The notes beneath the pieces were generated by a model. The model was not told the DNA's origin. It worked only from the letters and a program-made list of their open reading frames with translations, and searched no databases. Source: Actinomycetota bacterium (lineage in GTDB: Bacteria; Actinomycetota; Thermoleophilia; Solirubrobacterales; Solirubrobacteraceae). Taken from it: a stretch of 64,000 bases of DNA. The translations under genes and the position numbers were made by a program. Shown here piece by piece: positions 1 to 56,065 of the stretch. The first letter of the stretch is position 1, and each line of letters begins with the position of its first letter. Location of the stretch: NCBI GenBank assembly GCA_009699865.1, contig WLNJ01000008.1, forward strand, positions 1 through 64,000, written 5' to 3'.

Positions 1-143
1 GGCGTGATTGGCGTAATCAAAGAACAGGCCATTGAGGCAATGAGCACTCACCTGCCTGTCCGCTTTGAGCCTGCCGAGGCAAACCCTTGGATCAACGCGG
101 TAATGATCGAGCCCGCAAGCGCAAACGCGCCGGCGACGATCAC
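1..143 (-). CDS. possible start of a membrane glycosyltransferase, apparently frameshifted, runs off the window
   Basis: A GTG at 143-141 overlaps the stop of the upstream gene (GTGA) and opens a 31-codon frame. Its first part is hydrophobic and reads like a first membrane helix; it stops at 50-48. A second frame starts with GTG at 51-49, again as a GTGA overlap. It runs to the window edge without a stop and reads LNGLFFDYANHA, which resembles the first periplasmic loop of polytopic GT-C enzymes. The two pieces look like one protein split by a frameshift, but they could also be a tiny ORF followed by a separate gene. Too little is visible to decide. Confidence 0.25.
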
Positions 144-1669
144 GCAGGTCTTGCGCCCGGCTTCCTGACCGTCCAGTCATCGGACACGGCGACAAAGACC
201 GCCGGTAGGAACCAGACCAAGTAGGTGTAGAACCAGTAGACGGCTGAGAGCTCAACCGCAATGACAACGGCGGCGGCCAGCGCTGCCAAGCGGACTGGCG
301 TTCGACGATCGCCACGGGGCAGAAGTGTTGCGAGCAACACCAGCCCAGCCACACAAACGCGCCACCCCTGAAGCAGCCAGTGGGGCAAGTGCCACCAGCC
401 CCACGCGGAGAATGGCGAGTCGCGGCCATCCTGGAAGCCAACGGTGCGCTCCCAGACCTTGATCGGATCGTCGAGGTAGGGCAGGAGGACGATCGCGAAC
501 GCCACGGCTGCTGCCAGTACATAGACGAGCATGTCCCTTCGCCGTGATGAGTTCCTAACGCGGAGGAAGATCGGTACGAGGGCCAGTGTCGCCATCTTTG
601 ACAAGCCGCCTACGACCGCTGCGGCTCCCCGCAGGGCCGCACCACGGACACCGCTGACCGTGGCTGCCAGAAGCGCCAGAACAATGAGCAGCGCCGGCAG
701 CGTGTCGTTTGCAGCGCACATTGCCGTGTAGAGAGTGAATGGGCACGTAACCCACAGCCAGCTGAGTATCAATGCACCGGGAGGACCTCTCAGCCGCCAG
801 CCAAGGAGTGCTAGCAGCGCCAGCGCCAGCAGGTCCAGCACTACGGCAGCAGCCGCAGCTGCGGCCAGACGACCGTCATTTGAGTCCGCGTCAAAGATCA
901 GCGCGAAGGGCGCGTAGGCGGCCCATGTGACTGGCCCATAGGTGTCCCCTCGCTCAATCCTCTTTGGGAAGTGTCCATAGACCGCTGCTCCTGACGCAAG
1001 TCTGTTGCCCCCGATAACACTCGCCTCACCAACATCGATCACATTGCCGTCCGCGATTGTGAACGCGGCCCTGAAACCGATCAGGAACACGATCCCCACG
1101 ACCATCGCCTTGCTTCCAATCAATGTTCGGATCTGGGCTGTGTCCGGCTTGGGCCCCTTGATACCCCTCCACAACATTCGACACATCAACCACAGGAGCG
1201 GCGGGTACAGAGTGGGAACCGAGATGTCGAGTCTGCCTCTGTTGAACCCAGCAATGGACACCGAGAGGAGCGCCACGGCGGCAATATCTAAGTGGGCCAA
1301 AGAAGGCCGTCTGCGCGGCAGGAACGGCAGCATGAAGAGCGCCAGCAGCGGCAGCCAGACCCAGAGCGCAGAAGCATCCTTGCCAAACGCTCCTGGGTAG
1401 CCGCGAGCCATTGTCCAAGCAGCCTGGAACCCAGTCCACTCCTCCTGCACCTTGCCATCGGCCCGCGCGATGAATACCTCAACGACCAACTCACCCTTGG
1501 CAGACCAGAACTGCTCACGCCAACGCCCAGGCTGCTTGGTGAAGTCCCAGTGCCCTCCCTTGTGTGACCGAACCTCCGCCTTGACGGCAGGGAGCGCCTT
1601 TGTGATCCGACGGGCGTGGCTTTCGCTGATTGAAGCCAGGGCCGGTGATGCGGCGACCATCAGCACCAC
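140..1669 (-). CDS. polytopic membrane protein, GT87/DUF2029-like glycosyltransferase
   Basis: This 509-residue protein starts with a signal-like hydrophobic segment (residues 1-13). A soluble region of about 90 residues follows, containing a WDFTKQPGRW-type stretch and the strand-like segment GELVVEVFIARADG. About ten membrane helices then follow from residue 102. The loop with GNRLASGAAVYGHFP and TYGPVTWAAYAPF resembles the first catalytic-side loop of GT-C (mannosyltransferase-like) enzymes, which use polyprenyl-phosphate sugars at the outer membrane face. It lies 19 bases after the phosphodiesterase gene in the same direction, so the two are probably cotranscribed. The donor and acceptor cannot be read from the sequence. 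The soluble N-terminal domain before the helices is unusual for a plain GT87 enzyme. Confidence 0.6.
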   Translation of the reverse strand: MVLMVAASPALASISESHARRITKALPAVKAEVRSHKGGHWDFTKQPGRWREQFWSAKGELVVEVFIARADGKVQEEWTGFQAAWTMARGYPGAFGKDASALWVWLPLLALFMLPFLPRRRPSLAHLDIAAVALLSVSIAGFNRGRLDISVPTLYPPLLWLMCRMLWRGIKGPKPDTAQIRTLIGSKAMVVGIVFLIGFRAAFTIADGNVIDVGEASVIGGNRLASGAAVYGHFPKRIERGDTYGPVTWAAYAPFALIFDADSNDGRLAAAAAAAVVLDLLALALLALLGWRLRGPPGALILSWLWVTCPFTLYTAMCAANDTLPALLIVLALLAATVSGVRGAALRGAAAVVGGLSKMATLALVPIFLRVRNSSRRRDMLVYVLAAAVAFAIVLLPYLDDPIKVWERTVGFQDGRDSPFSAWGWWHLPHWLLQGWRVCVAGLVLLATLLPRGDRRTPVRLAALAAAVVIAVELSAVYWFYTYLVWFLPAVFVAVSDDWTVRKPGARPA

Positions 1670-43197: not shown

Positions 43198-44964
43198 GTG
43201 ACTCGAACTGCCCGAATAGCCTTCGCATTGGTTGCTGTCGCAGCCGTCGGGGGTCTCTATGTGGCCCAGAGGTTGAGGCACAGCGAACCGGTAGTTCTTG
43301 GTGTGCGCAGAACCGCGGCCTTCTCGCCGACTGGTTTGGGACCACGCCATGCCGCAGTGTCGTTCTACCTGAAGCGCTCAGATACGGCCGCGGTCTCAGT
43401 CGTTGACATCCAAGGTGACCAGGTTCGGTCCATCTCGCCCGGAACGAAGGTTGGGGCAAGACGGCGAGTCGTGTTTGTCTGGGACGGACGTGACTCCGCG
43501 GGTGAGATCCCAGCGGACGGGACTTATCGCTTCAGGATTGGGTTGGCCCGCCAGGGACGGTCGCTGACGGTGCCTAATGGAGTCAGGCTTGACACTAAGC
43601 CAGCCCAGCCCGTGGTAACCAGGGTGCTGCCTGCTCACGGTCCTGGCCCGCTCATTCTGCCCGGACCCAAGCAGGCCGTAGGGGTTGTCTCGGGGACCCC
43701 CGGTCACGATGTTGAGGGGTTCATCCTCAGGACTGACATCAGTCCTGCGAAGGTTGTTCGTCGGTTCCGTCTCCCAGATCGTCCAGCTCGCATCACTTGG
43801 GACGGGAAGGTGAACGGGCGACCAGCAGTTGATGGCACCTACCTGCTTGGCCTTACAGAGACTGACTCTGCCGGCAACCGGGGCAGCACGCCGCAACATC
43901 AATTTCCCGTTGCTGGTCCCACGCGAGGTCGGGCGGGCGTCACCGTGCGCCATCTGGGCGTGGCGGTGCCCCAGTTGCCCGCCAGACCAGGAGGCATTGT
44001 CAGCACGAGGGTTGATGCACGCGGGCGCGACTGGACCTGGTCGCTGGCCCCAGCGCTAGGTGGAAAGGTTCTGAAGAAGGGCAAGGGTCGCGGAAATGTC
44101 ATTCGACTGCGCGTTCCCCTCAAGGCCAGAGGCCTACTGACCCTTGCTGTGGCAGCCAAGCCCTATCGGGTAGAGGTTCCGATTGGGGTGGAGACTGGCC
44201 GCCGGCCACTCTTGGTGGTGCTTCCCGCAATCCGGTGGCAGGCCTTGGCACCCGTGGACGCAACGGGCGACGGACTCCCTGATTGGCTCGAGTTGGGTCG
44301 CTCGGTCGCCCTCGGTCGGCTGCTGCCACCCCTGTCTGGCGGGCTGAACGGGCTCAATAGCCAAGTCACTCCACTTCTACGCGCTCTCGCGGCCACGGGC
44401 TTGGCCTACGACGTAACCACTGACATTGCGCTCACCAAGGGCCGTGGACCACGACTGGAGGGGCACCGGGGAGTAGTGCTTGCAGGTGAGGAAACTTGGC
44501 TGACGGAGCCTTGCCTCAAGCGCCTCAGAGAGAGGGTTATTGCCGGCGGGAGACTGCTTGACCTAGGCATAGATGCGCTTCGCCGGACGGTTGTGATCAA
44601 GGGCGATGTTGTTTCCGCTCCAAGCCGGGCAACTGAGGCCAATGCCCTTGGGGCAGTGATCTCTGAGCCATCGGTCTCAGCTGACTACTTGTTGCAGTGG
44701 AAGGATGACCTTGGGCTGTTTGCGACGATTGGTGGAAGGGTGTTCGCTCCGGTTGGCTGGCGCGGGACCAGCCGTTTGATTGGCTCCACAAAGCTACTGT
44801 CAGCTGCCGGACCACAGTCGGGCATTTCGGGAATAGCAGCCTGGCGGCTTGGGAAGGGCGTTGTCATTCGGCCGGGCATTCCTGGCATGGCGGCACTCGC
44901 AGTTCAGGGCCCCACAGCGCTCGCGGTCCTCAGTCGCGCACTCGTGATCACAGCCGGGCGCTGA
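43198..44964 (+). CDS. envelope protein with FlgD-type Ig repeats and N,N-dimethylformamidase-like C-terminal region
   Basis: The 588-residue protein begins with a signal-anchor (ARIAFALVAVAAVGGLYVAQ). Two FlgD-type Ig segments are visible by the WDG...PADGTYRF pattern: WDGRDSAGEIPADGTYRFRI near 96 and WDGKVNGRPAVDGTYLLGL near 200. Farther on, a compact region (ALAATGLAYDVTTDIAL to the VVLAGEETWLTEPC and GGRLLDLGIDAL segments) resembles the glutamine-amidotransferase-like C-terminal domain of N,N-dimethylformamidase-beta-type proteins. The catalytic Cys/His set is not obvious. It is probably an exported surface protein whose role is unknown. Neighbours are LytR_C and an acyltransferase. Confidence 0.7.
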   Translation: MTRTARIAFALVAVAAVGGLYVAQRLRHSEPVVLGVRRTAAFSPTGLGPRHAAVSFYLKRSDTAAVSVVDIQGDQVRSISPGTKVGARRRVVFVWDGRDSAGEIPADGTYRFRIGLARQGRSLTVPNGVRLDTKPAQPVVTRVLPAHGPGPLILPGPKQAVGVVSGTPGHDVEGFILRTDISPAKVVRRFRLPDRPARITWDGKVNGRPAVDGTYLLGLTETDSAGNRGSTPQHQFPVAGPTRGRAGVTVRHLGVAVPQLPARPGGIVSTRVDARGRDWTWSLAPALGGKVLKKGKGRGNVIRLRVPLKARGLLTLAVAAKPYRVEVPIGVETGRRPLLVVLPAIRWQALAPVDATGDGLPDWLELGRSVALGRLLPPLSGGLNGLNSQVTPLLRALAATGLAYDVTTDIALTKGRGPRLEGHRGVVLAGEETWLTEPCLKRLRERVIAGGRLLDLGIDALRRTVVIKGDVVSAPSRATEANALGAVISEPSVSADYLLQWKDDLGLFATIGGRVFAPVGWRGTSRLIGSTKLLSAAGPQSGISGIAAWRLGKGVVIRPGIPGMAALAVQGPTALAVLSRALVITAGR

Positions 44965-45064: not shown

Positions 45065-47353
45065 ATGAGCACGCTCAAAGGCCTCCAGTCATTTCAGCAG
45101 CGTCTGACCAAGCGCCCCGATCTTCACGCTGGGCGTTTCCCATACATGGATTCACTGCGTGCTCTTGCTGCGTTCAGCATCGTGATCTTCCACTTCGCCG
45201 GCTACGCGGCATTGCCACCAGAGATGGACTGGCTGCGGCCACTTCAGGTCCGACTTGGCGCTGGCGTACTTGTTTTCTTCGTGATTTCCGGGTTCTTGAT
45301 CTATCGGCCTTTTGTTAGGGCCAATCTGGAGGGAGGCTCGCGTCCGGAGACAGCGGGCTACGCAAAACGCCGATTCTTGAGGATTGTCCCCGCCTACTTC
45401 CTTGCTCTCACGGTCACAGCGGCCCTGGCAGGCAAGTCGGATGTTTTTGGCCCCGATGGATTCCTCTACTACGGCTTTGCCCAGATCTACAGCCCGGGAC
45501 TTGAGCTACGCGGTCTCTCGGTCGCATGGTCGCTCTGTATTGAGGCCACGCTCTACGCCTTCCTCCCCATCTGGGCGCTCTTTGTAGGCCTGGTGCCAGC
45601 GCGTACAGCGGTTGAACGCCACCGCCGCGAAATCTCGATGCTGGTCCTCCTAATTGCTTTGGGAGTCGCCACCCGGATCATCCTGAGTAACACGCAGGGG
45701 AGGGTTGGAGCAGTGTCGATCCTCGCCTACCTAGACATCTTTGCGCTCGGCATGCTGCTGGCCTACTTTTCAGTGGCCTGGGAAGGCCGCAAGCTTCCGT
45801 CTTGGTTGGGGTGGCTAAACGAATACCCAGGGATTGCGTGGGCACTGGCTGCCCTTTGTATCTGGGCTATGGCAACGCAGACAGGTCCCAACCGCTCGGC
45901 TTTCCAGCACGCAATGACCAGCGACCTTTGGCTCCGACATGGACTCTCTGCGGCGGTTGGAGTCTTGCTTGTGATCCCGCTCGCTTTTGGTGATCAGACA
46001 AAGGGCACGCTTCGACGGGTACTTTCCCAGCCATGGTTCCTCTGGGCTGGCGTCGTTTCTTACGGTGTCTACCTCTTCCATCCGATTGTTCTCAAGAAGC
46101 TCAAGGACGCCGGGGCTTTCCCGACCCACCCCAACATTCTGGAGTGGTGGGGAATGCTGTTGCTGGTGGCAGCGATAACCGCCGGAATAGCAGCGATCTC
46201 GTGGCATCTTCTCGAGAGGCCCTTGATCAACCTCAAGAACACCCCGCTGCTCTCCAAGAGCCGCCCAGCACTCCCGCAGACCGCGCAGATAGCAATCGGA
46301 ATTGGAGGATTGGCAATGATCGCAACAGGCATATTTGGAACCGATTATGTGTTCATCGACTTTGTGCTTGTCGCCTCGGGCGCGGTTCTCGCAGCCGCAG
46401 CGCTGATCCCAGCCAATCGACCGCGTCCTGCCAGTAGCCTGCTCGCAGGTATTGGTGCGGTGGCGGTAGCGTTCGCGATCGTTCCTGGCCTGCTCACACT
46501 CAGCGCACCCGCGCCAGCGAAGGCGAGCACCTCGGCCTTCCCCCAGCGGGCGTATCTAGCCGGGACCGTTGGCAACGGGCGCATCCAACTCTTCCTCAAC
46601 GGCAAGGTCATCGCAAGCGGACCTGCTCCCAAGAACTTGAAGCCTTCTAAGTCCCCGTTCGAAATTGGCGGCGTTACTGGTGGCCATGGGTGGAGTGGCT
46701 CACTTGACTCAGTGGGTGTTTGGGACCAGCCATTGTCACAGGATGCCTTGCGCAAGCAGTTCCTTGTTGGCGCAAACGGCAAGACTGGGAGCGTCAAGTC
46801 TGTGATGCATGTTTCTGATGGCTTGGTTCGTTGGTACGGACTGGGTGACATCGGCAAGGGCGTCAAGGATCGTGCGAGCGGTACTCACGGCAAGGTTGTT
46901 GGAACAGTCGGTCAATCACCTAACCATGTTGCCCCTGGCGACCACGATGGGGGCGCCGCTAAGTTCCTGGGCAAGGGCCGAATCTCCACGCCACCTCTGC
47001 TCAACGTGAGCCCGTCGAATTTCACGGTCGCGACATGGGTCCAGACCGGGGCCTCGATCTCCGACCGAACGGTCGCTGGCGTCCAAGGCGCTTGGCTGTT
47101 GAAGACCGATATTTCCGGACATTGGACCTTCGGGGTCAAGCAAGGTAAGGCCGGATACACGGTTGTTAGCCGCCAGACAGCACAGCGATTTGTCCCGGGT
47201 GCCGCACAGCAGGCCCGGATCAAGGAAACACCAAGTGGGGTTTCTCTCGGTGGGCTGCTCGCAGGACTCCTCGTTCTCGGAGCAGGACTCCTGCTGATCC
47301 CATCGGTGCGCAGGCGAGTCGTTCGATTCACGGGCAGCCTCAGCAAGCGCTGA
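45065..47353 (+). CDS. acyltransferase 3 (OafA/YrhL) fused to LamG-like domain
   Basis: The 762-residue protein has an N-terminal acyltransferase_3 domain (about 25-390) with the conserved His in LRALAAFSIVIFHFAGY, the Arg motif YAKRRFLRIVPAYFLAL, and about ten helices. These O-acylate surface sugars. After extra helices (approx. 405-480), an extracellular region follows with GTVGNGRIQLFLNGKVIASG, FEIGGVTGGHGWSGSLDSVGVWDQPLS and PSNFTVATWVQTG. These are LamG/concanavalin-like strands, which often bind glycans. A final membrane helix (LGGLLAGLLVLGAGLLLIP) and a basic tail close it. The fusion suggests an acyltransferase that holds its glycan substrate. The upstream 100 bases have no Shine-Dalgarno. 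Confidence 0.88.
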   Translation: MSTLKGLQSFQQRLTKRPDLHAGRFPYMDSLRALAAFSIVIFHFAGYAALPPEMDWLRPLQVRLGAGVLVFFVISGFLIYRPFVRANLEGGSRPETAGYAKRRFLRIVPAYFLALTVTAALAGKSDVFGPDGFLYYGFAQIYSPGLELRGLSVAWSLCIEATLYAFLPIWALFVGLVPARTAVERHRREISMLVLLIALGVATRIILSNTQGRVGAVSILAYLDIFALGMLLAYFSVAWEGRKLPSWLGWLNEYPGIAWALAALCIWAMATQTGPNRSAFQHAMTSDLWLRHGLSAAVGVLLVIPLAFGDQTKGTLRRVLSQPWFLWAGVVSYGVYLFHPIVLKKLKDAGAFPTHPNILEWWGMLLLVAAITAGIAAISWHLLERPLINLKNTPLLSKSRPALPQTAQIAIGIGGLAMIATGIFGTDYVFIDFVLVASGAVLAAAALIPANRPRPASSLLAGIGAVAVAFAIVPGLLTLSAPAPAKASTSAFPQRAYLAGTVGNGRIQLFLNGKVIASGPAPKNLKPSKSPFEIGGVTGGHGWSGSLDSVGVWDQPLSQDALRKQFLVGANGKTGSVKSVMHVSDGLVRWYGLGDIGKGVKDRASGTHGKVVGTVGQSPNHVAPGDHDGGAAKFLGKGRISTPPLLNVSPSNFTVATWVQTGASISDRTVAGVQGAWLLKTDISGHWTFGVKQGKAGYTVVSRQTAQRFVPGAAQQARIKETPSGVSLGGLLAGLLVLGAGLLLIPSVRRRVVRFTGSLSKR

Positions 47354-47440
47354 CCCATCCGGATCGACCTGCCATGCTGAATAGTGCAAACGTTTCTAGG
47401 ATTCACTGGCCGGACTGGGACGCACGCGGGGGAACGTGAA

Positions 47441-48634
47441 ATGCACGGCCTGACAAGCACTCATTCAGACGAAGCCGCACAAGCGGCACCGGACGGAGAT
47501 TCCATCCACATCCTCGTGCTCACCGACCGTGACTGGACGCATCCGCAGGGTGGTGGAACCGGTACGCACTTGCACGAGCAGGTCAAGTTTTGGCTCGACT
47601 GGGGCCATAGCGTGACAATCGTTGCCGGTGGATATCCGGGCGCCCTTCCCATCGAGCGTGAGGGCAACCTGACCATCAAGAGAATTGGGAGCAGAACAAC
47701 CGTGTTCCCGAGAGTGATCATGAGGGGCCAGAAGTCCCTCGAGCCGCGGGCCGACGTCGCCCTTGAGGTCATCAATGGGATTACTTTCCTGACTCCCCTG
47801 TGGATGGACATCCCCCGGGTCGGCATGATCCACCACATCCACAAGGAGCACTACGTCCGCGAGATGGGTGGCGCCGGCAAGTTCGCGGCCGCCGCGTTGG
47901 AAACGATCCCTCTTAAGACGCTCTACCGAGACACCGCCTTCCTGACGGTCTCTGACTCAACTGCGGCAGAGATCGCAGAGCATGGGGTTCCTCGCGAGGC
48001 GATCCAGGTCGCCCACAATGGCGTAGATACCTCGTCGCTGCAACCTGGCCTGAGAGCTGAAGTTCCGACGATTCTCTACTTGGGCAGGCTGAAGAAGTAC
48101 AAGCGGGTTGAGTTCCTGCTTGATGCGCTCGACCTGGTTCCCGACGCGATTCTCGAGATTGCTGGTGATGGTGACAATCGCGAAGCAATCGAGGTTGAAG
48201 TGGCGCGCCGTGGGCTTGGTGCTCGAGTGCGCTTGCACGGCTTTGTAACTGAAGAGGAGAAGGTGGAGTTGCTCCAGCGTGCATGGCTGAATGTGACAGC
48301 GTCATCTGTTGAAGGTTGGTCTCTTGTGGCCTTGGAGTCGGCTGCCTGCTCAACCCCAACCGTGGCAATGCGAGTGGGCGGCCTTAGGGAAGCGGTCGTT
48401 GACCACGAGACAGGTTTGCTGTCCGACACAAGGGAACAGATGGCCGCCAACGTTCAGCGCCTTCTTCTTGATGATGATCTCCGAGCCCAGATGGGAGAGG
48501 CAGCGCGGTTACGATCCGCGACCTTTGCATGGGAGAGGACGGCAACTTTGACGATCGAGGCGTTCCGTGATGCCATGGCAGCTCACACGCCGAATGCCAA
48601 GTCCGGCGGGCTTGTTGGAAAGCTGCGAGGCTAA
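47441..48634 (+). CDS. GT4 family glycosyltransferase
   Basis: The 397-residue GT-B enzyme has an N-terminal acceptor domain (ILVLTDRDWTHPQGGGTGTHLHEQVKFW). The donor-binding domain has ILYLGRLKKYKRVEFLLDAL and the EX7E-type motif SSVEGWSLVALESAACSTPTVAMRVGGLREAV. It transfers a sugar from a nucleotide donor in the cytoplasm; the sugar is not predictable. ATG 47441 is chosen, with GGGGGA before it; a frame from 47384 adds residues without family support. The methyltransferase gene follows after 5 bases and is probably in the same operon. Confidence 0.92.
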   Translation: MHGLTSTHSDEAAQAAPDGDSIHILVLTDRDWTHPQGGGTGTHLHEQVKFWLDWGHSVTIVAGGYPGALPIEREGNLTIKRIGSRTTVFPRVIMRGQKSLEPRADVALEVINGITFLTPLWMDIPRVGMIHHIHKEHYVREMGGAGKFAAAALETIPLKTLYRDTAFLTVSDSTAAEIAEHGVPREAIQVAHNGVDTSSLQPGLRAEVPTILYLGRLKKYKRVEFLLDALDLVPDAILEIAGDGDNREAIEVEVARRGLGARVRLHGFVTEEEKVELLQRAWLNVTASSVEGWSLVALESAACSTPTVAMRVGGLREAVVDHETGLLSDTREQMAANVQRLLLDDDLRAQMGEAARLRSATFAWERTATLTIEAFRDAMAAHTPNAKSGGLVGKLRG

Positions 48635-48639
48635 TTGGT

Positions 48640-49380
48640 ATGACTGCCACGCCGAAGAAGCCACAGGGTCTGAACCGTTACCGCGAGTATTGGACGCTGT
48701 TTCGCAATGAACAGACTGACCCTGAGCCGTTCTACCGGCGGATGGCGTCGGACACGGCGGACACACTAGAGGCCCGCCATGGAAGTGTTGTTGGGAAGCG
48801 AATTCTGGATCTTGGATGCGGTGCCGGCTGGTACACAGCAGAGCTAAGGACCCGCGGCGCGGATGTGCTCCCAGTTGACCTTGATCCAGGGGAACTGGCC
48901 CTGGCAGGAGCGCCACCAGAGGGAGCGCTCGTAGCCGATGCAGCCGACCTGCCCTTGGAGGATCAGTCGATTGATGCTGTGCTCTGCTCGAACCTGCTCG
49001 AGCATTGCTCGAGGGCTCCAGTTGTGATTGATGAGATCGCGCGAATCCTTAAGCCGGGCGGATGGGCTTATGTTTCATGGACTAACTGGTACTCGCCATG
49101 GGGAGGCCATCTCTACGCCCCTTACCACTACCTCGGCCCACGCTTTGGTACCTGGCTCCATGATCGTCTCCACGGGACCCCGGACAAGAATGTGATCAAC
49201 GATGGCCTTTGGCCAGTTCATATCTCAACGATTCTTGCCAGGGTTAAGAGCCACCCTGAGCTTGTTATTGACCGGGTCGAGCCCCGCTATTGGCCCCGGC
49301 TAGCCTTTATCAGCCGGATCCCAGTTGTGCGCGAAGTTCTCTCGTGGAACTGCGTTATCCACTTGCGCCGCGCCGCCTGA
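48640..49380 (+). CDS. class I SAM-dependent methyltransferase
   Basis: The 246-residue protein has a Methyltransf_11-type fold with the SAM motif ILDLGCGAGWYTAEL, the acidic ribose ligand in VLPVDLDPGELAL, ADLPLEDQSIDAVLCSNLLEHC and the post-motif ILKPGGWAYVSW. Many members of this subgroup methylate sugars or lipid-linked glycans, which would suit the locus, but the substrate is unproven. It overlaps the oppositely directed AftD-like gene by 26 bases at the 3' ends. Confidence 0.88.
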   Translation: MTATPKKPQGLNRYREYWTLFRNEQTDPEPFYRRMASDTADTLEARHGSVVGKRILDLGCGAGWYTAELRTRGADVLPVDLDPGELALAGAPPEGALVADAADLPLEDQSIDAVLCSNLLEHCSRAPVVIDEIARILKPGGWAYVSWTNWYSPWGGHLYAPYHYLGPRFGTWLHDRLHGTPDKNVINDGLWPVHISTILARVKSHPELVIDRVEPRYWPRLAFISRIPVVREVLSWNCVIHLRRAA

Positions 49381-52300
49381 ATTTCTTCAGACGTACGGTC
49401 GCGCGGATGCGCCTGATGCTCCACCGGCCGGCGCGTGGATGGGTAGCCCAACGAATTCTCAGCGCGGTAAGAAAGGCCCCGGAGCCGGCTAGAAGGATCG
49501 CAACGGTGGAGATCCAATGTTCCCCAATCAGTTCGACCGCGTAGTAGAAGTTGCCGCCGTTCTTGTTCTTGGGGAGCTGTGCCAAGTAGCCGAGGGGTAC
49601 GAGGCACAGCGCCACGAAAGCCATTGTGTAGAGGCGCCGAACATTGACCCCCCATAGTCCGAGGAAGAGCGTAAGAAGGGCAATTGGAGGGGCAACTCGC
49701 AGAGCAAACAGGGCGGCGGCGAGGGCGCCGGCGAAGAGCGGGGCGGTCGCGGCAAAGCCTCGACGGGCATGAGCGAGCGGGTCGTTACCTGGAGCGTCGT
49801 GTGGGGTTGTCTCAATTGGCTCGGGTGCTCCGGCAAGGCGGCGCCGTCTGGTGGCCAAAAGGCTTGCCGACAGGATCAGGGCGAAGAGACCGGTGGCTCC
49901 TGCGGAGGCGATGTAGGCGTTGGTAGCCGTGGCTTGGGGAGCGAACGAGAATCGCGCGACGCGACATTTGCTCGAGACCGGCCAGCCAGCCGCAAAGCCA
50001 TCAACAACTCTCGGAACTCCAAGGTCGACCATGTGGTCACGGTCGGGACCGCAGAAGGCCTTCCAGCCAACGCTCATGCTCTCTCCGCGAACAAGCCAGC
50101 CAGGCCCGTCGAACTGGACATGGGCGTAGCCATCCTTATCCAGGTGTGGAGAGAGTGCTCTAGCACCCGTCTGGGCCACAGCCGGCTTTGGTGGCTTCGC
50201 AGTCAGCTCCAGGTGATCGATTCGCATCAGTGTTCCTTCCGGCGCAATGATCGCGTTGGGACCACCGATCAGAGGAATTGTCTTCCTTGCCCCACACGAG
50301 CTGAACTTCAGTGGCCGCGCGTTGTCGAGGTCATCGACGGTGCCGGTCACTCGTCCCTTAACCGAGCTGTCGTTGGCGTTGACGCGGAGCGAGCCGCAAG
50401 CGGTTGCGAAGGTCCCTCGCCTGCGGGGAGCAGGCGCCTTCATTCCAGGTACCACTACCTCGCGGATTGCCACTGCTGGGAGGAGACGGAATGAGGCTGG
50501 GCCGGGAGGAACTGCAGATTTCACTATGTCAATCCGAATATTGCGTGCCCGGATGGCGCGTGGCAGCGACACTGATCCGTTGGCACCAACTTTGACGAGT
50601 CCAGTCGCAAGACCATCAAATGTCACCTTGACGAGTGTTGCGCGCGCGTAGAGCGGAGAGTCGGGGACTAGCTTGAGTGACCGCACTAGGACAGGCTTAG
50701 GGGCTCGCCAAGCGAGCCAAGGCTTTATGCCCGTTCGGGATTCGCCGATCCAGGCGGTCCGCGGGTTGTGGTCAAAAGCGGAGGATGCTCGATGAATAGG
50801 CTGGCCTTCGAACCGCGGGGAGCCGCTGAATGTCCAGCCACCCTTCATGCCTACTAGTCGGTCAAATTTGGGGTCAGCTGCCCAGGGAGCACTGCTTGCC
50901 CAGCCAGCGGGAAGGAAGTTCCGGCTTGTGGGAATGCTGACGATCCGCTCGATCGACCGCTCAGCATCGAATGTGGCCTGAGGGTCACCAGTTGGTACCG
51001 GCCCGCCGTAGGCGCCTGACTCCCGGTACGGGTCCGGTGCGGTCTGCCTAGAGAGGAGAACTGAGATCGGATTCCGGGAGAGGTTCATACCGGCAGTGGC
51101 TTTCGACGCCCAGATTGGGGTGCGCAGCCACTCGTGGACGCTGACCCGGGGGATCTTGATCTCGTCAATACCGCCAAGGTCAATACCGCCGAAGGTGGAT
51201 GTGTGGGTGATTCGAACGCGGATTGTGCTGATCGGAATGGCACCCATTCCGACGCTGTTCCAACCTGGCATGAGCTTGATGTCGCGCTCTGGTCCACCGT
51301 TGACAGAGAGAGCGATTCTCGTGGTCTGAACTAGCCCATCACGGTGTGGGTGGATCTGGATTGCTTCCACTTGTACTGGCTTCTTTAGGCCGACCTCGAT
51401 CCATCTGCTGGCGGGGAGGAAGTTCGAAGGCGTCCAAGTGGTTCGGAGGTCACCGTCCATAGCTGCGTAAGGTCTTGCTTCTGGACGCAGGAGGAGCTGA
51501 GGGCCTTCTGGGTTGGTCACATAGTCGACGCCCGTGTAGACGGACACTGTCTGTTTGGAGTGTCCAATGCCCTCAAACAGTGCATAGGAGGGAACATCCG
51601 GGGCAATCTTGTCCCGCGTAGAGAGGACGGTTCCCTGGTCATGAGTTGTCCTGGTGGCAAGGACGGTCTGGCGGCGGTTTGTGTCGGTGATTACCAGCGA
51701 GGCTCCGTCGTGAACAAGGCTTTTGAGCTGCGCCTGCGATTGATCTCCTGTGAAGAGGATTGCCTTGGAGTCGGGCATTAGGTTTGCGGCTGCGAGCTCA
51801 GTAATCGCATTGGCATCACCGGTCACAAGGACAGAGCTCTTGCGCGAGTGCGCTCTGATCAGACCAGGTGAATTCGCTTCAGTCCCGGTGATCTTGTACC
51901 GGCGGATCGCTGGCAGTGAGACCACTGGCCCCCCTCGGCCGACTGCTGGGGGAACCAGAATGTTGGGGCCGTAGCTTTCCGCAGGCTTGTTCAGGTAGGG
52001 CTCTGTCTTGAATGCCTGAACCGCACTGGCTGCGTCAATTTCGCCTGAGCTCTCCGGCGTTCCGTCGGCCGACACAATGACTTGGTCCACACCGATCAGT
52101 CTGAGGAGCCGTCCAAGTTGTCCGGGGATCAGGCGTCTCTGCTGGACGAGGTTGTCAACTGCCGTCAGTAGCTGGGAGCTGTGTGCATCGGAGTAGCGGA
52201 CCGCATAGCGCTGCGCGACGGGCGCCTTGGTGATCGCCGGCGCGACCGGGTCAAAGGTCGCTCCCCACCGGTACACGCCGAACTGCTGACCGGGGAGGAT

Positions 52301-53875
52301 CATCGCTCGATACCCGGGCGCGGTCTTTGTGTTGAGGTCACTCGCCGCGGCCCTCCAATAGTCGGGGACATCCTTGTAGGCAAGCTGAGCATCAATGGCG
52401 TGACCCGTGAACATCGGCCACCCGAAGGCAATCGGAATGGCAATCAGACCCGCTGTCATTGCCCGCCGCGAAGCAGGGGTGCGGGCCCGCCTGAGCAGGT
52501 CGGCGCCGCCCGCGCCGACCAGACACGCCAGGGCTACAGAGAGAAGCGGTGCGGCTTTGTAGGTAGTCCTCAGGATCTGGAGGAGTGGGAATCCGTAGTA
52601 GGCCTTGATCAGAAGTGTGTAGAGGGGCTTGCCTGGAGGGAAGCCGACTGCCATGACCGTTGTTGAGAAAACGGCTAGGAGTACGAAGAAGGGGATATAA
52701 GGGCGTTTCCAGATACGGGACAGTGAGCCGAACGCCATCAGGGGAACTGCAAAGGTCGCAGCAACTAGGACCGGAGCAAACAGATAGACCGTGGTTGGTG
52801 GCACCACTGCGCGGCTTGCCCCGAATCCGATCTGGAAGTAGCTGATCCAATACCCCAAGAGCCGGAGTGACTCAGACACGCTGTTGGTCGCCCAAATGGT
52901 TGAGGGCTGCTCAGTGAAGGAGAGGAAGTCGGCGCCGTAACCGCTCTGGAGCCAAACTGGAATAGCCCACCAGATCGATAGTCCAGCGACGCAGAGCATT
53001 GTGCGCCAAAGGAATGACCAAGCAGCTTTACGCGATCGGCCGATCACAGCGACTTCGTAGAACATCAGGAGCAGTGGTGCCAGAAGTACCCAGAGGAGTA
53101 CGGCAGCGTTAACACCACCACCACCGACCGCTATCAGCATTCCGGCTGTTATCGGCCAACGCCAACGCCTCGGCTGGAGCACTCCCCGGTGAGCGGCGAG
53201 GAGCAGCCACGGAAGGACGGCATAGGCGAGCAGGGTGATCGTGCCTCGGTTGATCTGGGTGACGACATACGGGTTGAAGACGAAGACAAGTCCGGCCAAG
53301 AGGCGGGCCGTTCCGTCGTGCCGATCCCAAAGTGCGCCCAGCAGTCGGGAGATCCCAATTGCGCCCCCCGCGAGGATCATTGTTAGCCACAGCCGCTGGA
53401 CCATCCACATGGGGATCCCCAACTCGCTACCACCGGCATAGAAGGGAGCCATTGGGAAGAGGTAGCCGACGAACTGACCCGACTGGACGTGACCAAGGTC
53501 GTAGGTTGACGACCACACATCGGAGACTCGGCTGAGGAAGAGAGTGGGGTCAGCGGTCAGGTCGCTTCGTGAGTCAGTGAACACCAGGCCTGGGCGCTGG
53601 AGGAATGTCATTACCGCTGATGCGAGGAGGAGCAGCCACTCGGCTCTCTTTGGGAGTAGAGGCGTGCGTGGCTTTGTGAGGACCTCTTCGACTGTTGGGA
53701 CTGGCGCTGTGACCGGCGCTTGGATCTCGCCAATCTCGACTAGGTCAACGGTCTCAGTTGTACTTGAGTCGAGCAGCGGCTCTAGGCCTGCTGGAACCGG
53801 GGTTGCTACTTGGCTCTGTTCCTCTACCCCAGTTTCTGTGGTCTCCTCGTCACCAGTGCGTGGCGTTGTGCTCAT
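49355..53875 (-). CDS. AftD-like alpha-(1->3)-arabinofuranosyltransferase family protein (DUF3367)
   Basis: The 1506-residue membrane protein matches the DUF3367/AftD architecture. A Thr/Glu-rich cytoplasmic N-terminus (about 70 residues) precedes a GT-C domain of about ten or more helices (about 80-480). The likely catalytic loop includes DSRSDLTADPTLFLSRVSDVW. A very large extracytoplasmic part follows with discoidin/F5-8C-like segments (LRTTWTPSNFLPASRWIEVGLKKPVQVEAIQI near 800 and ASSAFDHNPRTAWIGES near 1060). C-terminal helices and a basic tail end it. Mycobacterial AftD adds arabinofuranose branches from decaprenyl-phospho-arabinose to arabinogalactan and lipoarabinomannan. The sugar used here is not shown. 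It starts one codon boundary after the GT-C gene (TAA-ATG) and is coupled to it. Confidence 0.9.
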   Translation of the reverse strand: MSTTPRTGDEETTETGVEEQSQVATPVPAGLEPLLDSSTTETVDLVEIGEIQAPVTAPVPTVEEVLTKPRTPLLPKRAEWLLLLASAVMTFLQRPGLVFTDSRSDLTADPTLFLSRVSDVWSSTYDLGHVQSGQFVGYLFPMAPFYAGGSELGIPMWMVQRLWLTMILAGGAIGISRLLGALWDRHDGTARLLAGLVFVFNPYVVTQINRGTITLLAYAVLPWLLLAAHRGVLQPRRWRWPITAGMLIAVGGGGVNAAVLLWVLLAPLLLMFYEVAVIGRSRKAAWSFLWRTMLCVAGLSIWWAIPVWLQSGYGADFLSFTEQPSTIWATNSVSESLRLLGYWISYFQIGFGASRAVVPPTTVYLFAPVLVAATFAVPLMAFGSLSRIWKRPYIPFFVLLAVFSTTVMAVGFPPGKPLYTLLIKAYYGFPLLQILRTTYKAAPLLSVALACLVGAGGADLLRRARTPASRRAMTAGLIAIPIAFGWPMFTGHAIDAQLAYKDVPDYWRAAASDLNTKTAPGYRAMILPGQQFGVYRWGATFDPVAPAITKAPVAQRYAVRYSDAHSSQLLTAVDNLVQQRRLIPGQLGRLLRLIGVDQVIVSADGTPESSGEIDAASAVQAFKTEPYLNKPAESYGPNILVPPAVGRGGPVVSLPAIRRYKITGTEANSPGLIRAHSRKSSVLVTGDANAITELAAANLMPDSKAILFTGDQSQAQLKSLVHDGASLVITDTNRRQTVLATRTTHDQGTVLSTRDKIAPDVPSYALFEGIGHSKQTVSVYTGVDYVTNPEGPQLLLRPEARPYAAMDGDLRTTWTPSNFLPASRWIEVGLKKPVQVEAIQIHPHRDGLVQTTRIALSVNGGPERDIKLMPGWNSVGMGAIPISTIRVRITHTSTFGGIDLGGIDEIKIPRVSVHEWLRTPIWASKATAGMNLSRNPISVLLSRQTAPDPYRESGAYGGPVPTGDPQATFDAERSIERIVSIPTSRNFLPAGWASSAPWAADPKFDRLVGMKGGWTFSGSPRFEGQPIHRASSAFDHNPRTAWIGESRTGIKPWLAWRAPKPVLVRSLKLVPDSPLYARATLVKVTFDGLATGLVKVGANGSVSLPRAIRARNIRIDIVKSAVPPGPASFRLLPAVAIREVVVPGMKAPAPRRRGTFATACGSLRVNANDSSVKGRVTGTVDDLDNARPLKFSSCGARKTIPLIGGPNAIIAPEGTLMRIDHLELTAKPPKPAVAQTGARALSPHLDKDGYAHVQFDGPGWLVRGESMSVGWKAFCGPDRDHMVDLGVPRVVDGFAAGWPVSSKCRVARFSFAPQATATNAYIASAGATGLFALILSASLLATRRRRLAGAPEPIETTPHDAPGNDPLAHARRGFAATAPLFAGALAAALFALRVAPPIALLTLFLGLWGVNVRRLYTMAFVALCLVPLGYLAQLPKNKNGGNFYYAVELIGEHWISTVAILLAGSGAFLTALRIRWATHPRAGRWSIRRIRATVRLKKFRRRGASG

Positions 53876-55216
53876 TTAGGATGCCGCCGCTGATTCAAGC
53901 CGTCGCCTGCGTACGGCAACCAGTTGGGCGATGACTGGCGAGGCCACGATTAGCAGCATCGGCTCGAGTGGAACGTGGTACCTGAATTGGCCGTAGAGGA
54001 CTACTGAGTAGAGCGCGGTGCTGAATGCAACATAGGTGAGGATGGCCCGCAGGACGCTGTTCCGCCAGACGCTTCGACCGAACACTGCCAGTGAGGCAAT
54101 GAACGCGGTGAAGAGGACGTACCAACCCATGTCAGCGATCGTTCCCAGCCGGTCGGCCCAAGCATGGTTGAGGGGTTTCTTCCCGTCTCCAGTCTTGTTT
54201 ACCCAGAAGTAGATGGATCCGCCATCGCCCTCAGTCAAACCGAGGAACCGCCAGGGGATTAGCGCTAGGTCTTGCAAAGGGTGGGCCTTAATCCAATTGG
54301 TAGCGTCCTTTTGCAGGAGCTTGCTCTGATCAATTTGGTAGAACCGGCCATTAGATGGACCTGCCTGTGCGGTCAGCGAGGGAGGCGGATAGCTCTGCTT
54401 GCCTGTCGCAGTTGGGTTGTGGCCTGACCAGAAGGTCGAACCGAAGTTTGTACTCACAGGTATGAACCGGTGGAAAGTTGAGTAGTTGCGCATGGTCCAT
54501 GGGACAACGCAGAGGATCGCGACACCCAACACGACTCCCAACCGCTCGGCTAGGACTCTGCGTGGAAGACGCGGGAACCATGCGGCTAGGGGCATCAGGA
54601 TCATCAACGGTCCTTCGCCTCGGGTGAGGGTCGCGACGCCCATCACAAGGCCGATCAGAGCAGCAGTCTGAATCGTCGGTTCGCGATGGGCGATTAACCA
54701 CAGCGTCGTCAGCAGGATCAGGACGAACAGCGGCTCGGACATAAGAACATCAGTGAAGAAGATCTGGGCTGGGAGAATTGCCATACCGATTGCGCAGATC
54801 CGCGCTTCGACTCGACCAAAGGTCCGCTCTGCGATGGAGTAGATCAGTGGTACGGCCGCGGCTCCCATAAACCCGTTCAGGAACTCCCCCGCGAGAGGGC
54901 TGGTTCCAGTGAAGCGATAAAGGACAGACAGGACGAACGGATAGCCGGGCGGCCACTGCCCGAAAGGCCTGCCGTCAAGGGTGGCGAAGCCCTTTCCGTC
55001 AGCGGCCATTGCCGCAACTGAGTGGTAGAAGAAGGCGTCGTTGAAGGCGAAATTATTGTGCCGCTGGACGCTGAGAATCATGATTGCGCGGAACAGAAAA
55101 GCGAGTGCCGTGACGGCAAAAAGGAACTGCGCATCCGGTCGGGCGGTAATCCGCCCGATTCTGCTGTTTAGGGCCCCTCCGCCCCCTGCCTGTGAAACGG
55201 TTCCCACTATGTACAA
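53876..55216 (-). CDS. GT-C (PMT/ArnT-type) membrane glycosyltransferase
   Basis: The protein (446 residues from TTG 55216, with GAGG seven bases before it) has an N-terminal helix, then the extracytoplasmic loop HNNFAFNDAFFYHSVAAMAADGKG with acidic residues typical of the GT-C catalytic site. PFGQWPPGYPFVLSVLYRFTG and about ten helices follow. These enzymes take sugars from polyprenyl phosphate at the outer face. GTG 55207 is another possible start; a longer frame to 55390 overlaps the divergent methyltransferase gene and is unlikely. It directly precedes the AftD-like gene in one operon, suggesting stepwise decoration of one glycan. Confidence 0.85.
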   Translation of the reverse strand: MYIVGTVSQAGGGGALNSRIGRITARPDAQFLFAVTALAFLFRAIMILSVQRHNNFAFNDAFFYHSVAAMAADGKGFATLDGRPFGQWPPGYPFVLSVLYRFTGTSPLAGEFLNGFMGAAAVPLIYSIAERTFGRVEARICAIGMAILPAQIFFTDVLMSEPLFVLILLTTLWLIAHREPTIQTAALIGLVMGVATLTRGEGPLMILMPLAAWFPRLPRRVLAERLGVVLGVAILCVVPWTMRNYSTFHRFIPVSTNFGSTFWSGHNPTATGKQSYPPPSLTAQAGPSNGRFYQIDQSKLLQKDATNWIKAHPLQDLALIPWRFLGLTEGDGGSIYFWVNKTGDGKKPLNHAWADRLGTIADMGWYVLFTAFIASLAVFGRSVWRNSVLRAILTYVAFSTALYSVVLYGQFRYHVPLEPMLLIVASPVIAQLVAVRRRRLESAAAS

Positions 55217-55249
55217 GCCTAGTCCTCGCAAGGGCTGGACGCGCTGGCC

Positions 55250-56065
55250 ATGCCGCCTGCTCGTACCGCTAGGATCGTCTTTCTGGTTGAAGGAAACGAC
55301 AGCACTGGGCACGTACCGACCCCCAACGACGGTTTTGCTTCCGCGTGGGCATCTGTTGATGGCGTAGAAGGCTGGATGACCGAAGGGCAAGCGCGCTTGC
55401 TTTGGGATGCAGCCAGTCGGGTTGCCCCAGGAGGAAAGATTGCTGAGATTGGCTCGTACCGTGGCCGTTCAGCGATAGTCATCGCCAAGGCAGCGCCTGG
55501 AGCTGGAGAGGTCGCTGCCATTGACCCTCACGCCGGCAACGATCGAGGCCCGCAGCAGATTGACGGAACCGCTGGTGAGGGTGAGGGCGACCACGAACTG
55601 TTCCACGCAAACCTCAAGGCTGCGGGAGTAGACGACAGGATTCGCCACGTCCGGCTGCCCTCACAGGGAGCGCACGCGGCAATCGAAGGCGGCTTGGACA
55701 TGCTCTACATCGATGGAGCCCACCGCTATGGACCTGCTGCAGCTGACATTCGGGACTGGGGCGCCCGGGTCAATGCCAACGGGACCATGTGTATCCATGA
55801 CTCGTTTGCCTCGGTTGGCGTGACTCTCGCGCAGATCCGCCTGCTCTTCTTCAGTCCGGACTGGCAGTACGTGGGCCGCTCGCGCTCGCTTGCCGAGTAT
55901 CGCCGGACTCCGATGTCTGGATCGGCGAAGCGGAGCAACGTCTTCAAGCAGATCAGAGAGCTTGGCTGGTTCGCGCGTAATGTCACCATCAAGGTTCTGC
56001 TTGTAGTGAAGCTTCGGCCTGTCGCCAAGTTGCTTGACGACGGCCGCGGCGAGTGGCCTTACTGA
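55250..56065 (+). CDS. class I SAM-dependent methyltransferase (Methyltransf_24-like)
   Basis: The 271-residue protein contains a SAM-binding motif GGKIAEIGSYRGRSAIVIAKA, the acidic ligand in VAAIDPHAG, a middle motif LDMLYIDGAHRYGPAAADIRDW, and the ANGTMCIHDSF segment. This is the pattern of Methyltransf_24 (PF13578), often found with sugar and cephalosporin-hydroxylase-type genes. The reaction is not known. It is divergent from the GT-C gene across about 34 bases, so promoters overlap or lie inside the coding sequence. Overlapping terminator-like hairpins follow its stop. Confidence 0.85.
   Translation: MPPARTARIVFLVEGNDSTGHVPTPNDGFASAWASVDGVEGWMTEGQARLLWDAASRVAPGGKIAEIGSYRGRSAIVIAKAAPGAGEVAAIDPHAGNDRGPQQIDGTAGEGEGDHELFHANLKAAGVDDRIRHVRLPSQGAHAAIEGGLDMLYIDGAHRYGPAAADIRDWGARVNANGTMCIHDSFASVGVTLAQIRLLFFSPDWQYVGRSRSLAEYRRTPMSGSAKRSNVFKQIRELGWFARNVTIKVLLVVKLRPVAKLLDDGRGEWPY

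What the first reader, a model, noticed from the sequence alone, without database searches (positions are those of the whole stretch)
45065..47353. Acyltransferase fused to a LamG-like domain
The protein joins a full OafA-type acyltransferase to an extracellular LamG-like region and a final anchor. Most acyltransferase 3 proteins end after the membrane domain or carry an SGNH domain. A glycan-binding tail would tether the enzyme to its substrate, and seems a rarely described arrangement.
Basis: partly seen in the sequence, partly recalled or inferred. Interest (0 to 1): 0.55.

Follow-up and report, generated by a model that had tools for sequence, protein, structure and literature searches.

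The report
Acyltransferase carrying a permuted lectin-like domain
A bacterial membrane enzyme that probably adds small acid groups to surface sugars carries a sugar-binding-type fold whose two halves are joined in swapped order and which is sewn into the membrane at both ends, an unusual build for this enzyme family.

Summary
Window 45065-47353 (+) encodes an AT3 acyltransferase core (PF01757, E 4e-26), three extra TM helices, an extracytoplasmic LamG-type domain and a last TM helix. Each half occurs once, so it reads as one circularly permuted LamG. A doubled LamG profile aligns co-linearly (E 4.7e-15). AlphaFold2 gives pLDDT 85.9, pTM 0.87. The best structural match is an engineered permuted glucanase (Z 10.5), though Foldseek alone had no hit at E <= 0.001. 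The domain is under purifying selection (dN/dS 0.044). The fusion was found in 3 of 4 genomes of one genus; the fourth has a contig break there. It sits in an AftD/GT4/methyltransferase cluster; 13 of 17 related loci outside the genus carry an AT3 without LamG. Glycan acylation with LamG as acceptor module is inferred. New variant of a known kind.

The parts
45065..47353 (+). whole gene: AT3 acyltransferase - 3 TM - circularly permuted LamG - TM (762 aa plus stop)
45140..46213 (+). AT3 (Acyl_transf_3) membrane core, residues 26-383, with R32-x10-H43, FFVISG (71-76), RFLR (103-106), SYGVYLFH (332-339)
   Evidence: Pfam PF01757, E 4e-26; motifs in 3 of 3 homologues, the last with one residue varying
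46283..46495 (+). three extra transmembrane helices (residues 407-425, 430-448, 459-477) that put the next domain outside
   Evidence: Kyte-Doolittle scan and charge counts in 3 of 3 homologues
46535..46762 (+). LamG C-terminal half, placed first (residues 491-566; Pfam match 497-560 to profile 83-148)
46763..46816 (+). new linker joining the old C-terminus to the old N-terminus (residues 567-584)
   Evidence: between the two profile matches; low-confidence patch in the model
46817..47212 (+). LamG N-terminal half, placed second (residues 585-716; Pfam match 638-703 to profile 5-73)
47243..47299 (+). last transmembrane helix (residues 727-745) with basic tail
47384..48634 (+). neighbour: GT4-type glycosyltransferase
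   Evidence: Pfam; recurs near AftD in relatives
48640..49380 (+). neighbour: methyltransferase (Methyltransf_11)
   Evidence: Pfam; recurs near AftD in relatives
49355..53875 (-). neighbour: AftD-like arabinofuranosyltransferase with CBM_AftD and F5/8C domains
   Evidence: Pfam
53876..55390 (-). neighbour: PMT_2-type glycosyltransferase
   Evidence: Pfam
55223..56062 (+). neighbour: methyltransferase (Methyltransf_24)
   Evidence: Pfam

Best explanation
It is an AT3-family acyltransferase that has gained three TM helices, one whole LamG (concanavalin A-like) domain in circularly permuted order, and a last TM helix. Shown by sequence and model: the AT3 core with its published motifs; the reversed order of the two LamG halves; one copy of each half between TM13 and TM14; a predicted compact ConA-like fold; purifying selection on the tail. 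Inferred: the AT3 core carries a short acyl group from acyl-CoA across the membrane and transfers it to a glycan made by the neighbouring AftD/GT4/methyltransferase genes. Also inferred: the LamG, stitched to the membrane at both ends, lies over or beside the outer face of the AT3 pore and holds or presents the acceptor glycan, the acceptor side that SGNH serves in AT3-SGNH enzymes, but without a catalytic triad. The permutation moved the chain ends from the usual N/C edge to the loop before the 'W-T-H-V' strand, so that the domain can be held as a loop between two TM helices with another face towards the membrane.
For: Reversed half order by Pfam and by a LamG profile built here, in 3 of 3 homologues. 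In profile-profile comparison the doubled LamG profile aligns co-linearly at 127-304 with score 105.8 against 89.1 for the single profile. AlphaFold2: pLDDT 85.9, pTM 0.87. VIA-align: best match 1ajo_B, an engineered circularly permuted glucanase (Z 10.5, rmsd 3.0, 149 aligned, model 2..208), then mainly concanavalin A-type lectins at Z about 7. dN/dS window against L001: LamG 0.044, AT3 0.062. AT3 motifs as listed in PMC7448272 and PMC9833829 (passages). Location: synteny with two relatives. An AT3 gene lies near AftD in 13 of 17 fetched loci outside the genus, all without LamG.
Against: No binding or enzyme activity is shown. Foldseek itself gave no match at E <= 0.001, and Z near 7 can be a common arrangement by the tool's own note. 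The model rests on rows taken from tandem canonical LamGs, so any such stretch might fold this way in silico; no control was folded, and with 2 rows only it failed (pLDDT 31). In the HMMER version of the doubling test the summed score of the tails did not rise (58.1 to 56.5 bits for the window copy). The N-half match alone is weak (21.3 bits, below Pfam's cut-off). The tree does not place the fused AT3 inside the AT3s of the related AftD clusters, so orthology with them is not shown. The tail diverges faster than the AT3 part between distant relatives (39% against 58% identity).
Confidence: 0.6

Rival explanations
1. The permuted LamG is a structural or docking module (contact with AftD, a glycosyltransferase or peptidoglycan-linked proteins), not the holder of the acceptor glycan. 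It works by keeping the AT3 enzyme in a complex.
For: No binding residues are known; LamG folds serve many roles (recalled). The neighbouring AftD-like enzyme is itself a large membrane protein with further domains, and gene order is kept.
Against: Only context speaks for it; no partner was tested.
Confidence: 0.25
2. The halves are remnants of two broken LamG domains, and the tail is a degenerate linker.
For: The N-half match is weak on its own.
Against: dN/dS 0.044 in the LamG region; the halves complement each other; confident compact model; order kept at 40% tail identity.
Confidence: 0.05
3. The reversed order is an assembly or frameshift artefact of a metagenome-assembled genome.
For: The three genomes are fragmented assemblies of 60, 69 and 200 contigs; L001, the named relative, is a MAG. 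Two partial LamGs elsewhere proved to be frameshifted canonical domains.
Against: Same intact reading frame and order in three genomes at 92% and about 50% identity with the same neighbours.
Confidence: 0.02
4. The protein does not acylate glycan; the AT3 core acts on another acceptor (lipid, protein or small molecule).
For: AT3 domains act on varied acceptors, and the AT3 fusion VanT has another proposed role (PMC9558356, passages).
Against: The gene lies among envelope glycan genes, and AT3 recurs in such clusters in relatives.
Confidence: 0.08

Closest known systems
AT3-SGNH acyltransferases (OafA, OafB, OatA)
   Same: AT3 core with R-X10-H, FFXISG and RXXR motifs; an odd number of extra TM helices that puts a C-terminal domain outside
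   Different: No SGNH domain; three extra TM helices instead of one; the outside domain is a permuted LamG and is followed by a further TM helix
AT3 proteins near AftD in related genera (L318, L321, L322, L325-L334)
   Same: AT3 core and similar neighbours (AftD, GT4, MT11 or MT24, PMT_2)
   Different: No LamG found in any of them; the tree does not group the fused AT3 with them
Laminin_G_3 (PF13385) domains
   Same: Sequence match over Pfam's cut-off; both halves of one domain present
   Different: C-terminal half precedes N-terminal half
Concanavalin A and engineered permuted beta-glucanase (1ajo, 1ajk)
   Same: ConA-like jelly roll in permuted chain order (ConA's natural permutation is recalled, not from a call); top structural matches
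   Different: Plant lectin or engineered soluble enzyme; no TM helices; about 10% identity
SucT of mycobacteria
   Same: Needed for succinyl groups on arabinan-bearing glycans (PMC10503756, passages); the AT3 nature of SucT is recalled, not from a call
   Different: No LamG known to me; not compared by sequence here

Membership tests
AT3 / Acyl_transf_3 (PF01757) | profile match over the curated cut-off | tested here: met
   92.3 bits against cut-off 31, residues 26-379
AT3 / Acyl_transf_3 (PF01757) | R-X10-H in TM1, FFXISG, RXXR near TM3 | tested here: met
   R32/H43, FFVISG 71, RFLR 103 in 3 of 3; motifs as given in PMC7448272 and PMC9833829
AT3 / Acyl_transf_3 (PF01757) | ten TM helices in the core | tested here: inconclusive
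   the hydropathy scan finds nine in the window copy and nine in L008, which misses TM1 but shows the helix at 256-274 that the window copy misses; together ten
AT3 / Acyl_transf_3 (PF01757) | acyl transfer activity | not testable with these tools
   needs an assay
AT3-SGNH fused acyltransferases | C-terminal SGNH hydrolase-fold domain | tested here: not met
   Pfam lists only Acyl_transf_3 and Laminin_G_3 at E <= 1
LamG (PF13385) | profile match over the curated cut-off | tested here: met
   50.5 bits, cut-off 27.6
LamG (PF13385) | canonical chain order (N-half before C-half) | tested here: not met
   reversed in 3 of 3
circularly permuted ConA-like domain | one complete domain in swapped order, continuous on a doubled profile, compact fold | tested here: met
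   by prediction, not by a solved structure; the HMMER doubling test was continuous only for L008
lectin / carbohydrate-binding module | binds a glycan | not testable with these tools
   needs a binding assay

The most novel reading that the evidence does not exclude
A natural circular permutation turned a LamG domain into a loop that can be stitched between two TM helices, giving AT3 enzymes a new kind of acceptor-side partner: a non-catalytic, double-anchored glycan-holding lid in place of SGNH. The permutation itself re-aims the binding face towards the acyl pore.
Probability: 0.35. Interest if true: 0.7.

Novelty: new variant of a known kind. Interest (0 to 1): 0.55.

Why it matters
How AT3 enzymes without an SGNH domain find and serve their acceptor is an open question raised in the AT3 review and the OafB model paper (PMC9558356 and PMC9833829, passages). 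A natural fusion to a lectin-like fold, permuted so that both ends can face the membrane, gives a system in which acceptor capture can be tested apart from acyl transfer. It also adds a natural case of circular permutation in the ConA-like fold, with a plausible reason (two-ended membrane attachment).

Tried and rejected
Structure of the tail from two rows (window and L001) failed: pLDDT 31, pTM 0.21. LamG half-fragments from viral contigs were misaligned by MAFFT in a local trial, 144 of 144, and were not sent. Instead 53 natural 'C-half, linker, N-half' stretches from tandem LamGs in viral contigs were used with the window and L001. A search for closer relatives of the tail in viral contigs gave none.

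Canonical LamG in other genera as a second case of permutation: of 39 loci checked (27, 12; several are the same place twice), only the two genus loci L157 and L158 showed the reversed pair with an AT3. L159/L009 and L162 showed only a C-half; their upstream frames hold the N-half, so they are frameshifted canonical domains.

Other AT3-LamG fusions: a full-length profile at E <= 1e-60 found 4 of 346 phylum genomes; none but the own gene extends into the tail. L310 and L312 have long frames, but the extra length lies before the AT3. The threshold is strict, so weaker fusions could be missed. The genome-contig scan found only L001. 44 plasmid records matched, none over 80% of the query; the 20 listed match the AT3 part only.

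Orthology with the AT3s beside AftD in other genera: expected, not supported. In the tree the three fused AT3s form their own clade (100/100), and 11 of 13 cluster AT3s sit in another (100/97). One cluster AT3 (L334, cut by a contig end) was left out of the tree, and L033 (a short AT3 match of G199) was not given to it.

Absence of the gene in G199: not evidence of loss, since its contig starts inside the GT4 gene next to where the fusion would be (L319).

In print: searches for acyltransferase 3 with LamG, circular permutation with LamG or laminin G, circularly permuted with concanavalin A-like or jelly roll (listing only), Acyl_transf_3 with Laminin_G_3 and acyltransferase with LamG domain, transmembrane, fusion gave no description of this fusion or of a permuted LamG that I saw. 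Only open-licence papers are held, so this is not proof of absence. PMC2824669 (passages) speaks of LamG-like domains with other proteins.

Full report
Observation. The ORF at 45065-47353 (+) encodes 762 residues without a break. Pfam finds Acyl_transf_3 at residues 26-379 and Laminin_G_3 over its cut-off. NCBIfam has no match at E <= 1, and phmmer against the PDB gave the tail no LamG match. The AT3 part carries R32-x10-H43, FFVISG at 71 and RFLR at 103, in 3 of 3 homologues; these are the motifs reported for characterised AT3 enzymes (PMC7448272 and PMC9833829, passages). After the AT3 core a hydropathy scan finds helices at 407-425, 430-448 and 459-477, and a last one at 727-745. The loops at 384-406 and 449-458 and the tail, which should lie inside, are basic, so residues 478-726 should lie outside. 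The core scan found nine helices in the window copy; the copy in L008 shows the helix near 256-274 that the window copy misses, while missing TM1 itself.

The LamG is circularly permuted. Residues 497-560 match LamG profile positions 83-148, and residues 638-703 match 5-73. A LamG profile built from 12 loci of the phylum gave the same reversed pair in 3 of 3 homologues: positions 127-195, 127-195 and 124-196 first, then 4-91, 4-91 and 3-91. Profile-profile comparison with a single LamG gave two separate pieces (127-197, E 1.3e-13; 2-106, E 3.7e-4). With a doubled LamG it gave one co-linear alignment (127-304, E 4.7e-15, score 105.8 against 89.1). In the HMMER version of the test the doubled profile did not raise the summed score of the tails (58.1 to 56.5 bits for the window copy), and only L008 became one continuous match; for 14 of 14 canonical domains doubling changed nothing but a loss of about one bit. 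Between TM13 (ends 477) and TM14 (starts 727) there is no space for a second N- or C-half, so the two halves can only complete each other.

Fold. With two rows AlphaFold2 failed (pLDDT 31.1, pTM 0.21). With 55 rows (window, L001, and 53 natural stretches from tandem canonical LamGs running from the C-half of one domain to the N-half of the next) it gave pLDDT 85.9 and pTM 0.87. The rows say nothing direct about packing between the halves, since in the tandem proteins these halves belong to different domains; but homologous tandem domains could still leak signal, and no control was folded. Foldseek against the PDB gave nothing at E <= 0.001; its first four rows are engineered circularly permuted beta-glucanases (1ajo, 1ajk), followed by concanavalin A-type lectins among unrelated rows. 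VIA-align 2 on Foldseek's 1000 best gave 1ajo_B at Z 10.5 (rmsd 3.0, 149 aligned, model 2..208), next 4qvs at Z 7.9 covering only the N-half (model 99..217), then mainly concanavalin A-type lectins at Z near 7. A ranking that prefers permuted ConA-like folds over ordinary ones is what a permuted jelly roll predicts. That concanavalin A is itself permuted relative to other legume lectins is recalled.

Selection. Between the window and L001 the LamG region has dN/dS 0.044, the AT3 core 0.062 and the whole gene 0.072 (NG86). The tail is not decaying. Against L008 the LamG region is 39% identical and the AT3 core 58%; dS is high or undefined there.

Distribution. With the tail as query 12 of 232 genomes of the order matched at E <= 0.001, 4 of 396 of the phylum at 1e-6 and 23 of 399 of the class at 1e-4; these sets overlap. 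The full tail was matched only in the own genus: G000, G198 and G200. Of 39 loci checked only the two other genus copies (L157, L158) had the reversed pair and an AT3. G199, the fourth genome of the genus, has no match, but its contig begins inside the GT4 gene next to the site, so nothing follows from it. In the genus LamG matches (PF13385, E <= 0.01) occur in no other protein apart from one weak match in G000. L001 lies in a Solirubrobacterales MAG named LacPavin.

Surroundings. Gene order is the same in L001 and G200. Upstream lie DegT aminotransferase, DUF354, Polysacc_synt_2, LytR_C and FlgD_ig genes; downstream GT4, methyltransferase, AftD-like, PMT_2 and methyltransferase genes, then a Wzx-type gene. 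The FlgD_ig neighbour is found in 182 of 232 genomes of the order. In 20 fetched loci around it (of those 182 genomes) no AT3 or AftD match at E < 1e-8 and no LamG-tail match at 1e-4 was seen by tblastn, so within that sample the AT3-LamG to methyltransferase block sits at this place only in the genus. AftD itself occurs in 43 of 146 family genomes at E <= 1e-40. Of 18 loci fetched around AftD, one is G199; of the other 17, 13 carry an AT3 gene within the stretch and none has a LamG. AT3 is thus a recurring member of these AftD clusters, but the tree does not place the fused AT3 among them, so the fused enzyme may be an independent recruit.

Mechanism. Shown: domain content, motif set, reversed LamG order, predicted fold, selection. 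Inferred from the AT3 literature: acyl-CoA is used from inside, and an extracytoplasmic hydroxyl is acylated (PMC9833829, PMC9558356, passages). Inferred from context: the acceptor is a glycan made by the neighbouring genes, possibly arabinan-bearing. In mycobacteria SucT is needed for succinyl groups on arabinogalactan and lipoarabinomannan (PMC10503756, passages), a parallel rather than a test. Inferred from the fold: the LamG holds or presents the acceptor next to the AT3 pore. The AT3 authors suggest that extra domains may relate to how the acceptor is presented (PMC9833829). The rival that it docks to a partner protein remains open.

Novelty. Published AT3 fusions are SGNH and alanine racemase, with others said to exist in eukaryotes (PMC9558356, PMC9833829). 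Searches showed no description of an AT3-LamG fusion or of a permuted LamG in the open-licence library. I rate it a new variant of a known kind.

Noticed in passing
window 49355-53875 (-): AftD-like arabinofuranosyltransferase (GT-C_AftD, CBM_AftD, F5/8C) in a small (1.7 Mb) genome; AftD matches in 43 of 146 family genomes, in 13 of 17 fetched non-genus loci with an AT3 gene near it.
   Followed up: partly
window 43198-44964 (+): Protein with a FlgD Ig-like domain, matched in 182 of 232 genomes of the order, next to LytR_C and Wzx-type genes; function not known to me.
   Followed up: partly
L318-L335, and window 47384-56062: A recurring family-wide cluster of AftD, GT4, methyltransferases, PMT_2 and AT3 whose gene order varies between genera.
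   Followed up: partly
L329: 1468-3785: Two AT3 genes side by side near AftD in G170.
   Followed up: no
L159 and L162: LamG genes broken by frameshifts in draft genomes, which look like half domains until the other frames are read.
   Followed up: yes
L040 (G000 C67: 59166-59435): Weak LamG match (16.8 bits, below cut-off) in a repeat protein of the same genome, probably chance.
   Followed up: no
L077-L156 (viral contigs): Tandem LamG arrays are common in these phage-type contigs: 21 of 91 LamG-bearing ORFs had two or more domains.
   Followed up: no
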